This document shows, piece by piece, positions 4,028 through 36,863 of a stretch of DNA of 37,842 bases (positions are counted from its first letter, which is position 1; every line of letters starts with the position of its first letter). The stretch spans positions 1 through 37,842 of the forward strand of contig QNZF01000029.1 in the NCBI GenBank assembly GCA_003978485.1. The letters run 5' to 3'. This DNA is from Persephonella sp. GTDB lineage: Bacteria > Aquificota > Aquificia > Aquificales > Hydrogenothermaceae. The translations under genes and the position numbers were made by a program. The notes beneath the pieces are model-generated. The model saw only the letters and a list, made by a program, of their open reading frames with translations. It was not told the origin of the DNA and searched no databases.

Positions 4028-4647
4028 TTGTTCCTCTCCAAATACACTTTGTCTATCCTTTTTCCATCAAATATTATTTTAAAAATCTTTAAGCTTTCTT
4101 CTTTGTCTAAATAAAGAATATTATATTTATTTTTACTAACTTTTATACAGTAAAATTTTTTGTTCGGCTTTGAATTGTCTAAAGGTTTGTCAAAGAGAAT
4201 AACTACAGATTTATTGCTTAACAAATAAATATTATTAAAATCTTTTTTTATATCTCCTTCCAAAACTAAAGCTATATCTTCTATCCTTTTTTTAGGCTTA
4301 AGGAAATCTTTAGATACTTCCATTAAATCTCTTGGTAAATCATTTAACGATTTTGAAGTTATACATTTTATACTTTCAAGTTTGTCCTTTTTATATATGT
4401 TTATACAACTACTAAATGTATTGGAAAGCATAGCTATATTTACAAATATATAATTATCTATCTCTTCATTAGTAATATTGGAAAAAGTGTTTAGGAAAAA
4501 ATCTTTTACTAAATTTTTTTCTTCACAATCAGAATTTTCACAATACTGATTTATATTAATTAATCTTATTTCTTTTAAATAAAAATCTTCTGCATAAAGT
4601 TTGTTAAAAGATATAAATAAAAGAAAGATAAAAAAGATATTTCTCAT
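4024..4647 (-). CDS. Hypothetical secreted protein
   Basis: 207 aa with an N-terminal hydrophobic signal peptide ([21 protein letters not shown]); no recognised domain. Overlaps the dtd start by 4 nt. Confidence 0.7.
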
Positions 4648-4650
4648 ACC

Positions 4651-5223
4651 TTAATCAAACTGACCTTCCTTATAGTTAAGTTTTCTTGTTGCACTTTCTC
4701 TAGTTATGGCAACTATACCTGTTCTAGCTATATCTTTAATACCAAATGGTCTTATTAAATCTATAAAAGCTCCTATCTTCTCTGTGTTCCCTGTTATCTC
4801 TATAGTGTATGTATCAGTGTAAACATCAACTATTCTGGCTCTAAATATATCTACAAGTCTCATTATTTCGTTTCTCTCACTGTCTGTTCCTGCGTGGACT
4901 TTTATTAATGCCAACTCTCTCTCTATATGTGGTTTATTGGTTATATCCTTAACTTTTAAAGTTTCTATTAGCTTTCTTAACTGCTTTATTATCTGCTCTA
5001 TAATCCTTTCATCACCGTTAACGACTATGGTTATCCTTGCAACATTTGGCTCATTTGTTTTTCCTACAGAGAGACTTTCAATGTTATATCCTCTACCTGC
5101 AAACAGACTGGTTATTCTTGTTAAAACACCAAAGTTATGTTGAGCTCTAACTATAATTATATGTTTTCTAACCTCTGTTTTTTTCTCTTCCCTTACCTTT
5201 AAAACTTTTATTTCCTCTGCCAT
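4651..5223 (-). CDS. ilvH: Acetolactate synthase small subunit
   Basis: ACT domain 'HNFGVLTRITSLFAGRGYNIESLSVG', 'ELALIKVHA'; downstream of ilvB. Confidence 0.93.
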   Translation of the reverse strand: MAEEIKVLKVREEKKTEVRKHIIIVRAQHNFGVLTRITSLFAGRGYNIESLSVGKTNEPNVARITIVVNGDERIIEQIIKQLRKLIETLKVKDITNKPHIERELALIKVHAGTDSERNEIMRLVDIFRARIVDVYTDTYTIEITGNTEKIGAFIDLIRPFGIKDIARTGIVAITRESATRKLNYKEGQFD

Positions 5224-33488: not shown

Positions 33489-33785
33489 ATGAAGAAAAAT
33501 TTAGAGGAAATAAAAAAAATTTTAAGAGAGCATAAAAAAGAGCTTAAAGAAAAGTATTACGTCAAAAATATTGCACTATTTGGTTCTTATGTTAGAGGAG
33601 AGCAAACATCAAAAAGTGATATAGATATACTTGTAGAATTTGAAAAAGCTATTACATTCATTCAATTTATGAAATTAGAAAATTATCTTTCTCATCCTTT
33701 AGGCTTAAAGGTTGATTTGGTAATGAAAAAATCTCTAAAGCCTTATATAAAAAAACAAGTCTTAAAAGAAGCTATTTTATTGTGA
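33489..33785 (+). CDS. MNT-type minimal nucleotidyltransferase (MntA-like)
   Basis: 98 aa; 'NIALFGSYVRGEQTSKSDIDILVEFEK' = GSxxRG...DxD nucleotidyltransferase core. Confidence 0.88.
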   Translation: MKKNLEEIKKILREHKKELKEKYYVKNIALFGSYVRGEQTSKSDIDILVEFEKAITFIQFMKLENYLSHPLGLKVDLVMKKSLKPYIKKQVLKEAILL

Positions 33786-33883: not shown

Positions 33884-34339
33884 ATGAACTTTTTCGGAAT
33901 TGATTTAAATAGCCTATCTCAAGATGAAAAATCTTTTTTAATATCCTTTTTTGCTTCTTTAGGAGTTGAAGTTGTTAAATCTCTTGGGACTTTCACAAGG
34001 AAAAAGGTTATAGGAAAGGTAAAAAGTGTATACGATAGTCTATTAAATAAAGATAAGAAAAGTCTCTCTGAAAAACTTATTAAAGAGTTGGAAAAAGAGG
34101 AAGTAAAAGAAAGAATAGGAGAGATACTATTTGAAAAATTAGAAAGTTTTATAGATGAAAAATTGGAGGATAACGGGAATATAAAAGAACATTTGGAAGA
34201 TTTAAACAAATTTTTAAAAGAAGAATTTGAGAGATATTTTATTAAAGGTGAAGGAAATATTTATATAAATTTGGAAATAAAAAATAACGAGTTGGACAAT
34301 CACTCACAGATTAACAATAGTATAAATATTAACCGTTAG
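33884..34339 (+). CDS. Small helical protein with N/I-rich beta C-terminus; candidate effector of an amyloid-signalling NLR
   Basis: ATG at 33884 behind GAGGTTAGGA (the ORF track extends to a TTG at 33863). N-terminus 'FLISFFASLGVEVVKSLGTFTRKKVIGKV' then charged helices, then 'GNIYINLEIKNNELDNHSQINNSININR'. Confidence 0.7.
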   Translation: MNFFGIDLNSLSQDEKSFLISFFASLGVEVVKSLGTFTRKKVIGKVKSVYDSLLNKDKKSLSEKLIKELEKEEVKERIGEILFEKLESFIDEKLEDNGNIKEHLEDLNKFLKEEFERYFIKGEGNIYINLEIKNNELDNHSQINNSININR

Positions 34340-34382
34340 ATTTTGTTAAAATAGAAAAAAGAGCAAATTTTAAGGTAGTTTT

Positions 34383-36803
34383 ATGATAGATGTTAATATT
34401 AATCAAAAAATTGAAGGAAACAAATTAGATAATTCATCTATTCAGCCAGAAATAAACGTTAATATAAGTGAAATATTTAAAATCAGTTGTCCATGGTTTA
34501 CAAAGGATTTTATAAGCAGTGATATTAAAAGTAGCTATTTTATAGGTAGAGATGAGGAATTAGAAGCAATAGAAGATATGCTATTTAATGGTTATCCTGT
34601 TCTTTTTATAGAGGGAGTGGCCGGAATTGGAAAAAGTTATCTAGTTAAAAAATTTTTTCCTAAAGCTTATGAAGAAAAGCTGTTTGATTGTTATGGTTAT
34701 ATATCCTTAGCAACTATTGAAAAAACTGATTTTGAAAATTTAGAAAGTTTTAAAACATTACTTTTTGAAGAGTTCTCATCTAACTTTAATTATAAACCTT
34801 CCAATCCAAATGAAAGACCTAAAGACAAATTTCTAAATTTAATCCATTATCTTAAAGAATTTGCAAAAGGAAAGAAAAAATTACTGATAATAGATGATAT
34901 TGTTAATATTGAAAATCTATATACAGACTTTTTTGAGAAGTTATTTAATTTAAAAGACAACAGTTTTTACTTCCTGATAACAACAAGGGAAGAGTTAACA
35001 GCTGAATTAATGGATAAAAGTTTTATAAATTGGATAAAACTAAAAGAACTAGAAGAAAAAGAATTAAAAGATTTGTTCTTTCATATTTGTAAAGAGTGTA
35101 ATCATTTAAAGGATAATAGAGAATTTAACAAAGTATTAGAAGAAGTATTAAAAGAGCTAGACTACAACACACTGTTAACGGAAATATTGGCAAAAATAGT
35201 AAACAACTACAGAAGCGGAAGATATAGAATAAAAGAGGATTTAAGATTATTTGCTATAAAAAATATATTAAAAAGGATAAGGGAACGACCAATAAATGAA
35301 GGATTAGCATATAGAGGATATGATAAGACAGTATTAGAAAGAACATTTAAACTTTTTGAGTTTTTATATCTAACAAAAAATGAGAAGAGATTAGCGAAAA
35401 AATTAACAGTACTACCACCTGAGGAGATAGAGTTTGAGGAGATAACAAGATTTTTCATAAAAGAGTTTAAACAACCAGTAGTAGATTTTGGGATATTGGA
35501 ATACAAAGAGAGGGATATAATAAAGAAAAAGATAGGAAAAAAGAGAATAGAAGAGTTTGAGGACTATTTAGACAGAAATTTAAACAATTTAACATTTAAG
35601 GGAGTATTAACCAGTAATGAAGAAGTTGTAAAATACAAACTACATAAGATAGTGAGGGATTACTTTATATCGTCAGGTATAGAGTATAAGGATATAGAGT
35701 TTCAGATAGGGGCATTTTCATTACAGTTACCAAGTAATAAGGAGAAGATATATAGTAAGGAGAAGGAGATAAGGAATTATCTAGGTAAGATAATAACGTT
35801 AGAGAGGACGTTAAGGAACGTAAAAGATTACGAGGAAATAAAAGATATAGAAGTAGCGTTATTTTATGTAAAGGCGAGTACAGTATTAAGGAATTTAAAA
35901 GTTTTTGATATAGCGGAAGAATTTTTAATAAGAGGAGGAAGGATATTAGAGAGGGTGGGATATATAGAGATAGGGGAAGGGGAAGAAATAGAGATAAAGA
36001 TAAAAGAAGAAAATATAAGGAGTATATCTGAAAAGAATTTAAAGGTAATAGGGAGATACTTTATAAGTTTGGGAAGTTTATACAGGGAGAGGGGAAAGGG
36101 TAAAGAGAGAGGGGATTGGGAAAAATCTATAAAGTATTTTGAGATGGCAGAAGGAATATACAACAGGTTAAAAGATAGTGAGAGAGATTTAATAACGATA
36201 TATGGGAATTTATCAAAAAGTTATAAGATGAAAGGGGAGATAAATAAGGCAATAAAGATGGCAGAAAAATCTTTAGAGATGTCAATAAAAAAGTATGGGG
36301 AAGAAGATAAAAAAACAATAAGAGGATATGGTAATATTGCTACAATCTACAAATCTAAAGGTGATTATGACAAGGCTTTGGATTATGCATTGAAAAATTT
36401 GAAATTGTTAAAAAATGCATATGGAGAAGAGCACGTAGAAACAGCTAAGGCATATGGTAATATTGCTACAATCTACAAATCTAAAGGTGATTATGATAAG
36501 GCTTTGGATTATTCAATGAAAGCATTGGAATTAACAAAAAATGCATATGGTGAAGAGCACGTAGAAACAATGGAAGCATTTTTTAATTTGGCAGATATAT
36601 ATTTTGAAAAAAATGAATTAGGTAAAGCAGAAGAATATTTAAAAAAGTTAATAAATATAGGAGAGAAGCTAAAAGATAAAAACAAAAGAGCTTTAAAAAA
36701 TTTAAAAGGAGTTTATGAGCTTTGTGAAAAAGTGTATAAAAAATTAGGAAATGAAGAGAATAGAAAAAAATGTAGAGAAAAGTTAAAAAACTTAAATAAA
36801 TAA
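34383..36803 (+). CDS. STAND/NB-ARC NTPase with C-terminal TPRs (bacterial NLR-like protein)
   Basis: 806 aa; 'YFIGRDEELEAIEDML', Walker A 'EGVAGIGKSYLVKKF', Walker B 'KKLLIIDDI', sensor 'FYFLITTREEL', 'LKELEEKELKDLF'; C-terminal TPR units 'AYGNIATIYKSKGDYDKALDYSMKALEL'. Confidence 0.88.
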   Translation: MIDVNINQKIEGNKLDNSSIQPEINVNISEIFKISCPWFTKDFISSDIKSSYFIGRDEELEAIEDMLFNGYPVLFIEGVAGIGKSYLVKKFFPKAYEEKLFDCYGYISLATIEKTDFENLESFKTLLFEEFSSNFNYKPSNPNERPKDKFLNLIHYLKEFAKGKKKLLIIDDIVNIENLYTDFFEKLFNLKDNSFYFLITTREELTAELMDKSFINWIKLKELEEKELKDLFFHICKECNHLKDNREFNKVLEEVLKELDYNTLLTEILAKIVNNYRSGRYRIKEDLRLFAIKNILKRIRERPINEGLAYRGYDKTVLERTFKLFEFLYLTKNEKRLAKKLTVLPPEEIEFEEITRFFIKEFKQPVVDFGILEYKERDIIKKKIGKKRIEEFEDYLDRNLNNLTFKGVLTSNEEVVKYKLHKIVRDYFISSGIEYKDIEFQIGAFSLQLPSNKEKIYSKEKEIRNYLGKIITLERTLRNVKDYEEIKDIEVALFYVKASTVLRNLKVFDIAEEFLIRGGRILERVGYIEIGEGEEIEIKIKEENIRSISEKNLKVIGRYFISLGSLYRERGKGKERGDWEKSIKYFEMAEGIYNRLKDSERDLITIYGNLSKSYKMKGEINKAIKMAEKSLEMSIKKYGEEDKKTIRGYGNIATIYKSKGDYDKALDYALKNLKLLKNAYGEEHVETAKAYGNIATIYKSKGDYDKALDYSMKALELTKNAYGEEHVETMEAFFNLADIYFEKNELGKAEEYLKKLINIGEKLKDKNKRALKNLKGVYELCEKVYKKLGNEENRKKCREKLKNLNK
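36326..36577 (+). repeat. Two near-identical 126-bp tandem units encoding 42-aa TPRs
   Basis: Units 36326-36451 and 36452-36577; 'atatggtaatattgctacaatctacaaatctaaaggtgattatga(c/t)aaggctttggattat' repeats at an offset of exactly 126 bp. Confidence 0.9.
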
Positions 36804-36863
36804 TAAAAAATTTGTAAACCTATATTTCTTTACTTTATGGTTTTCTAAATTTCTATAAACTTT

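What the first reader, a model, noticed from the sequence alone, without database searches (positions are those of the whole stretch)
34247..34478. Matching putative amyloid-signalling motif at the C-terminus of a small effector and the N-terminus of the adjacent NLR
SEEN: the effector ends NIYINLEIKNNELDNHSQINNSININ. The next protein, starting 43 nt downstream, begins M-I-DVNINQKIEGNKLDNSS-IQPEINVN. With a single one-residue gap, about 12 of 26 positions are identical (I.IN..I..N.LDN.S.I...IN.N), plus conservative I/V and D/N changes. The motifs are short, N-rich and alternate hydrophobic residues, and they occupy opposite termini of neighbouring genes. KNOWN: in bacterial amyloid signalling (BASS) pairs, a C-terminal amyloid motif on a cell-death effector matches the N-terminal motif of an NB-ARC/TPR NLR encoded next door, analogous to fungal HET-S/NWD2. 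INFERENCE: this is a BASS-like NLR-effector system, probably of an undescribed motif family. An Aquificota thermophile host would be unusual, because such pairs are mostly described from multicellular bacteria.
Basis: partly seen in the sequence, partly recalled or inferred. Interest (0 to 1): 0.92.

Follow-up and report, generated by a model that had tools for sequence, protein, structure and literature searches.

The report
Matching tails couple NLR and effector
Two neighbouring bacterial genes, a small helical protein and an immune-receptor-like NLR, share a short matching tail at facing ends, the layout that fungi and some bacteria use to pass a death signal by amyloid templating; here the motif is one not described in what I could read, and nothing has been tested at the bench.

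Summary
The last 26 residues of a 151-aa helical protein (33884-34339) match the first residues of an NB-ARC/TPR NLR 43 nt downstream (34383-36803): 12 identities, one gap. The match is the best of 971 predicted genes' C-termini in the fetched 84% of this genome (score 53, next 38) and the best of 620 adjacent pairs. Composition-preserving shuffles reach it 106 times per million. No pair among 198,197 pairs of N/I-rich proteome windows reaches it. Synonymous codons in the matched residues are randomised, so it is not a fresh DNA duplication. The anatomy (small helical protein, disordered tail, adjacent NLR with the matching tail at its N-terminus) fits the BASS/HET-S scheme. Best explanation: homotypic, probably amyloid, templating from oligomerised NLR to effector. 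Caveats: no homolog of effector or motif was found, so covariation is untestable here; amyloid formation and toxicity are inferred; BASS profiles were not available. A same-genus genome holds a related NLR as one fused protein (helical domain, N-rich linker, transmembrane helix, NB-ARC, TPR). It supports coupling by architecture only, because neither its motif nor its helical domain is significantly similar. The cassette is accessory.

The parts
33884..34339 (+). Small putative effector, 151 aa: predicted helical bundle (residues about 13-119) followed by a disordered C-terminal tail. First helix LISFFASLGVEVVKSLGTF is moderately hydrophobic and amphipathic; no strong transmembrane helix.
   Evidence: ORF; AF2 helices 13-33, 39-56, 63-69, 72-94, 100-119, tail 117-151 pLDDT < 50, overall pLDDT 56.5 and pTM 0.53, so low confidence; hydropathy; no Pfam, NCBIfam, PHROG, PADLOC or PDB relative
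34256..34333 (+). Effector-side motif NIYINLEIKNNELDNHSQINNSININ (residues 125-150), one residue before the C-terminus
   Evidence: alignment and chance tests
34383..36806 (+). NB-ARC + TPR NLR (STAND ATPase), 806 aa; coding sequence with the stop codon as listed (34383-36803)
   Evidence: NB-ARC residues 57-257, TPRs about 576-770
34389..34463 (+). Receptor-side motif DVNINQKIEGNKLDNSSIQPEINVN (residues 3-27 of the NLR)
   Evidence: alignment and chance tests
34340..34382 (+). 43-nt gap between the genes, with a ribosome-binding-like AAGG before the NLR start and no terminator-like site; co-transcription likely
   Evidence: sequence; terminator scan found none
33489..33785 (+). Lone minimal nucleotidyltransferase (MNT/MntA-like), 98 nt upstream on the same strand; membership of the cassette uncertain, no HEPN partner
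   Evidence: NTP_transf_2 2.5e-21; PADLOC candidate PDC-S09 4.4e-34; no RX4-6H motif in the next gene

Best explanation
The pair is a two-gene NLR-effector signalling module. The NLR senses a trigger through its TPR end and oligomerises through NB-ARC (inferred from the family). Oligomerisation brings its N-terminal N/I-rich segments together so that they stack. The stack templates the matching C-terminal segment of the small helical protein by homotypic, probably cross-beta (amyloid-like), assembly, which recruits and activates the helical domain, most likely as a membrane-acting cell-death effector in an abortive anti-phage response. Shown: the gene pair, the NLR domains, the non-random terminal match, the helical-bundle-plus-disordered-tail prediction, the accessory status. 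Inferred: homotypic interaction, amyloid nature, membrane action, anti-phage role.
For: The match is 1st of 971 C-termini, 1st of 971 N-termini and 1st of 620 adjacent pairs. Shuffle p is 1.06e-4, and 0 of 198,197 N/I-rich window pairs reach it. The 12 identical residues share 6 codons against 6.3 expected from genome usage, and only 44 of 75 nt are identical, so this is not a recent DNA copy. The motif sits at the extreme C- and N-terminus of the two proteins, in the BASS and HET-S/NWD2 order. The NLR is NB-ARC + TPR. The effector is predicted helical with a disordered tail. The motif occurs only in these two proteins of the genome (although that profile includes both). A related NLR in a same-genus genome (NB-TPR score 238 against best unrelated own-genome protein 160) has its N-terminal helical domain and an N-rich linker fused in front of NB-ARC, so helical domain and NLR work together. 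Neither gene was found in the third genome of the genus (97% complete), and the site after rng is different in both relatives, as expected for accessory defence genes.
Against: No homolog of the effector or of the motif exists in the collections I could search, so the pairing rests on one instance. A profile from the two motifs does not detect the fused relative's linker, and the two helical domains are not significantly similar (rank 24 of 859). [quoted passage not shown] The first effector helix is only moderately hydrophobic (1.44). No amyloid predictor was run. Genome-wide blastp E is only 0.024.
Confidence: 0.55

Rival explanations
1. The two tails bind each other or themselves in a non-amyloid way (beta-strand addition, a small beta-helical or docking element), tethering the effector to the NLR. 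The signal is induced proximity, without templated cross-beta conversion.
For: Everything that supports a homotypic match supports this equally. The motif lacks the shared glycines and RHIM core typical of known amyloid signalling motifs.
Against: Where short matching C-/N-terminal motifs of adjacent effector/NLR pairs have been tested, they behaved as amyloids (PMC8086366; HET-S/NWD2, abstract of PMC4344463). Both segments are short and N/I-rich, and the effector's is predicted disordered when alone.
Confidence: 0.22
2. Gene fission relic: an ancestral fused protein (helical domain, linker, NLR), like the one in the same-genus genome, split in two, and each half kept a copy of the linker. The match reflects ancestry, not signalling.
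For: The related NLR in the same genus is fused, with an N-rich linker at the corresponding place.
Against: Synonymous codons are already randomised (only 12 codons, so weak) while 48% of residues remain identical; a functionless relic should have lost this. A split does not by itself duplicate the linker. The fused linker and helical domain are not significantly similar to the split ones.
Confidence: 0.1
3. Chance similarity of two low-complexity N/I-rich tails in a 30% GC genome.
For: AT-rich genome; shuffle p 1e-4, which times 620 adjacent pairs is about 0.07; genome-wide blastp E 0.024.
Against: The pair is an NLR with its immediate neighbour, where a match was expected beforehand. No pair among 198,197 pairs of natural N/I-rich windows reaches the score, and no other adjacent pair passes 43.
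Confidence: 0.08
4. The small protein is the toxin half of an MNT-HEPN type toxin-antitoxin pair with the upstream nucleotidyltransferase, and the NLR is unrelated.
For: The MNT gene lies 98 nt upstream on the same strand and is a canonical NTP_transf_2 protein.
Against: The small protein has no HEPN Pfam match and no RX4-6H motif. It does not account for the matching tails.
Confidence: 0.04

Closest known systems
BASS NLR/Bell amyloid signalosomes (Dyrka et al. 2020, as described in PMC7889193 and PMC8086366), in particular the 'other BASS' pairs found only by pairwise alignment of neighbours
   Same: Adjacent genes; [quoted passage not shown] discovery by pairwise alignment
   Different: No RHIM-like core (not BASS3); sequence is N/I/D-rich without a glycine common to both sides; host is not reported among the mainly filamentous actinobacterial and cyanobacterial (and some archaeal) hosts; Bell homology not shown
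Fungal HET-S/NWD2
   Same: Effector C-terminal motif matches NLR N-terminal residues of the adjacent gene (NWD2 3-23; here NLR 3-27)
   Different: No HeLo domain detected, a single motif copy on the effector side, no HET-s consensus
Fungal sigma motif (sesA/sesB/HET-eN)
   Same: N-rich motif in an effector/STAND cluster
   Different: Sigma is long, G/N/Q-rich and repeated; pairwise scores to the published sigma peptide are at chance (p 0.4-0.6)
Bacterial effector-associated-domain (EAD/Death-like) coupling (PMC8195603)
   Same: Homotypic module links effector and NTPase sensor
   Different: EADs are folded helical domains, not short terminal motifs

Membership tests
BASS/Bell NLR amyloid signalosome | Adjacent genes for an NLR (NB-ARC or NACHT with repeats) and a small effector | tested here: met
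   NB-ARC + TPR NLR 43 nt downstream of a 151-aa protein
BASS/Bell NLR amyloid signalosome | Matching short motif at effector C-terminus and NLR N-terminus | tested here: met
[quoted passage not shown]
   Low-confidence helical bundle; first helix hydropathy 1.44, below a clear TM helix; no Bell profile in the libraries
BASS/Bell NLR amyloid signalosome | Motif belongs to one of BASS families 1-10 | not testable with these tools
   Profiles and the source paper are not held. BASS3 RHIM tetrad absent. Scores to the one published BASS3 peptide: effector p 0.02, NLR p 0.6
BASS/Bell NLR amyloid signalosome | Motif forms amyloid and cross-seeds | not testable with these tools
   needs peptides
BASS/Bell NLR amyloid signalosome | Motif pair conserved or co-varying in homologous pairs | tested here: inconclusive
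   No homologous pair found; one fused relative only
RHIM/BASS3/PP | [IV]-Q-[IVLC]-G tetrad | tested here: not met
MNT-HEPN toxin-antitoxin | HEPN toxin with RX4-6H next to MNT | tested here: not met

The most novel reading that the evidence does not exclude
An undescribed amyloid-signalling motif family, glycine-poor and N/I/D-rich, working at high temperature in a small-genome, AT-rich, apparently thermophilic bacterium, with a sister lineage in which effector, motif and NLR are one membrane-anchored polypeptide.
Probability: 0.35. Interest if true: 0.7.

Novelty: new variant of a known kind. Interest (0 to 1): 0.55.

Why it matters
If the motifs template each other, prion-like immune signalling reaches beyond the filamentous and multicellular prokaryotes in which it is mainly described, which bears on whether it needs multicellularity. 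It would also give a short, cheap peptide pair for asking how signalling amyloids assemble, possibly at high temperature and without the usual glycines. The split and fused versions in one genus would be a natural comparison of signalling in trans and in cis.

Tried and rejected
Effector homologs by 8-mer-seeded scans of genome contigs and viral contigs and by tblastn in plasmids and phages: none. The only relative-genome hit, G034, is a different, 399-aa ORF resembling Cas10 by eye, judged chance helical similarity. NLR NB part in 136 phylum genomes, genome contigs, viral contigs and plasmids: none above threshold except itself. Other strong NB-ARC proteins: G101 (L057) and G005 (L058, at a contig end) start directly at the NB domain with no N-terminal motif. 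The G002 fusion motif as a third motif-family member: rejected by a leave-one-out HMM (1.8 bits, below many unrelated proteins); hits in the three-row profile are by construction. Homology of the helical domains: not significant. Fold search of the effector model: no hit below E 0.8. BASS3, sigma and archaeal peptides from PMC8086366: effector against BASS3 p 0.02 and fusion against BASS3 p 0.007 out of nine comparisons, not convincing.

Full report
What is there. Window 33884-34339 (+) encodes a 151-aa protein and 34383-36803 (+) an 806-aa protein, 43 nt apart. The second is an NLR: NB-ARC at residues 57-257 (5.7e-11) and TPRs near 576-770. The first matches no family in Pfam, NCBIfam, PHROGs or PADLOC and no PDB sequence convincingly. 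AlphaFold gives five helices over residues 13-119 and a disordered tail 117-151, at low confidence (pLDDT 56.5, pTM 0.53). A 98-aa MNT nucleotidyltransferase lies just upstream; hypB follows on the other strand (identified by eye).

The match. Effector residues 125-150 (NIYINLEIKNNELDNHSQINNSININ) align with NLR residues 3-27 (DVNINQKIEGNKLDN-SSIQPEINVN), 12 identities and one gap, BLOSUM62 score 53. One million shuffles of both tails reach 53 in 106 cases. In 975 kb of this genome (971 predicted genes) the effector is the best C-terminus for the NLR's N-terminus (53, next 38), the NLR the best N-terminus for the effector's tail (53, next 34), and the pair the best of 620 adjacent same-strand pairs (next 43). 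Among 198,197 random pairs of natural N/I-rich windows none reaches 53 (max 47). Genome-wide blastp E is 0.024. The match is therefore not explained by composition; it is persuasive because it joins an NLR to its neighbour at the expected termini, not because the alignment alone is overwhelming. If one corrects for all 620 adjacent pairs, the shuffle p becomes about 0.07.

Age of the match. Of the 12 identical residues, 6 use the same codon, against 6.3 expected from genome codon usage; nucleotide identity is 44 of 75. So it is not a recent DNA duplication. The sample is small and cannot prove selection.

Relatives. The effector, the NLR's NB region and the motif have no relative in the searchable collections. 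In the phylum, strong NB-ARC proteins occur in very few genomes. The informative one is in a same-genus genome, G002 (L054 4882-7212, -): a 776-aa protein with a helical N-terminal region (about 115 aa), an N-rich stretch SLNIQNSTDSKQAGRDIDDKSINIKDSKNVNININ, a clear transmembrane helix (hydropathy 3.12), NB-ARC and TPRs. Its NB-TPR part is related to the window's NLR (score 238; best unrelated own-genome protein 160). This is a fused counterpart in architecture. However, a profile from the two window motifs does not pick out its linker, and its helical region is not significantly similar to the effector (rank 24 of 859). I treat it as support for functional coupling, not as a third motif member. 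G101 and G005 NB-ARC proteins have no N-terminal motif.

Accessory status. In G001 and G002 the gene after rng is a cytochrome-c-peroxidase-like gene (by eye), with no MNT, effector or NLR there; neither the effector nor the NLR's NB region was found in G001 (97% complete). The pair is thus a lineage-specific acquisition or a loss elsewhere, as usual for defence genes.

Mechanism. Bacterial amyloid signalosomes are adjacent NLR and small helical (Bell) effector genes with a matching motif at the NLR's N-terminus and the effector's C-terminus (PMC7889193). Several pairs, including an archaeal one whose peptide aggregated as amyloid, were found only by pairwise alignment of neighbours and missed by family profiles (PMC8086366). 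HET-S/NWD2 works on the same plan (PMC3321046). The window pair meets the testable parts: gene pair, NLR, terminal match, helical effector with disordered tail. I infer NLR oligomerisation, stacking of the N-terminal segments, templating of the effector tail and activation of the helical domain, probably at the membrane. Amyloid nature is the weakest inference: the motif has no glycine common to both sides and no RHIM tetrad, and a non-amyloid docking of the tails explains the sequence data equally well.

Membership. It works like a BASS pair. I do not file it in BASS 1-10: the profiles were not available, Bell homology is inconclusive, and amyloid formation is untested. RHIM/BASS3 membership fails on the tetrad.

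Limits. Searches beyond the phylum relied on exact-word seeds and would miss distant relatives. Apart from the G002 relative the pair has no comparison.

Noticed in passing
L054:4882-7212 (-), same-genus genome G002: Single 776-aa protein: helical N-terminal region, N-rich stretch with QAGRDI, transmembrane helix, NB-ARC, TPR; a membrane-anchored NLR with an apparent built-in effector-like domain.
   Followed up: partly
L054:7304-9607 (-), G002: 767-aa protein with no Pfam match, 92 nt upstream of the fused NLR on the same strand, plus a 140-aa orphan just downstream (4403-4825); possible partners.
   Followed up: partly
window 33489-33785 (+): Lone MNT nucleotidyltransferase (PADLOC PDC-S09) without a HEPN partner, next to the pair.
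   Followed up: partly
L067:1491-3824 (-), own genome contig C1: CHAT-domain protease (Pfam 2.1e-40) followed 31 nt downstream by a 230-aa protein with a hydrophobic C-terminal helix (IIAEIISMVIGGLIRGLK); looks like a protease-substrate cell-death pair.
   Followed up: no
L061:3932-8638 (+), G014: 1,568-aa STAND-like P-loop protein (NB-ARC 31 bits summed) in another genus of the family; N-terminal domain not identified.
   Followed up: no
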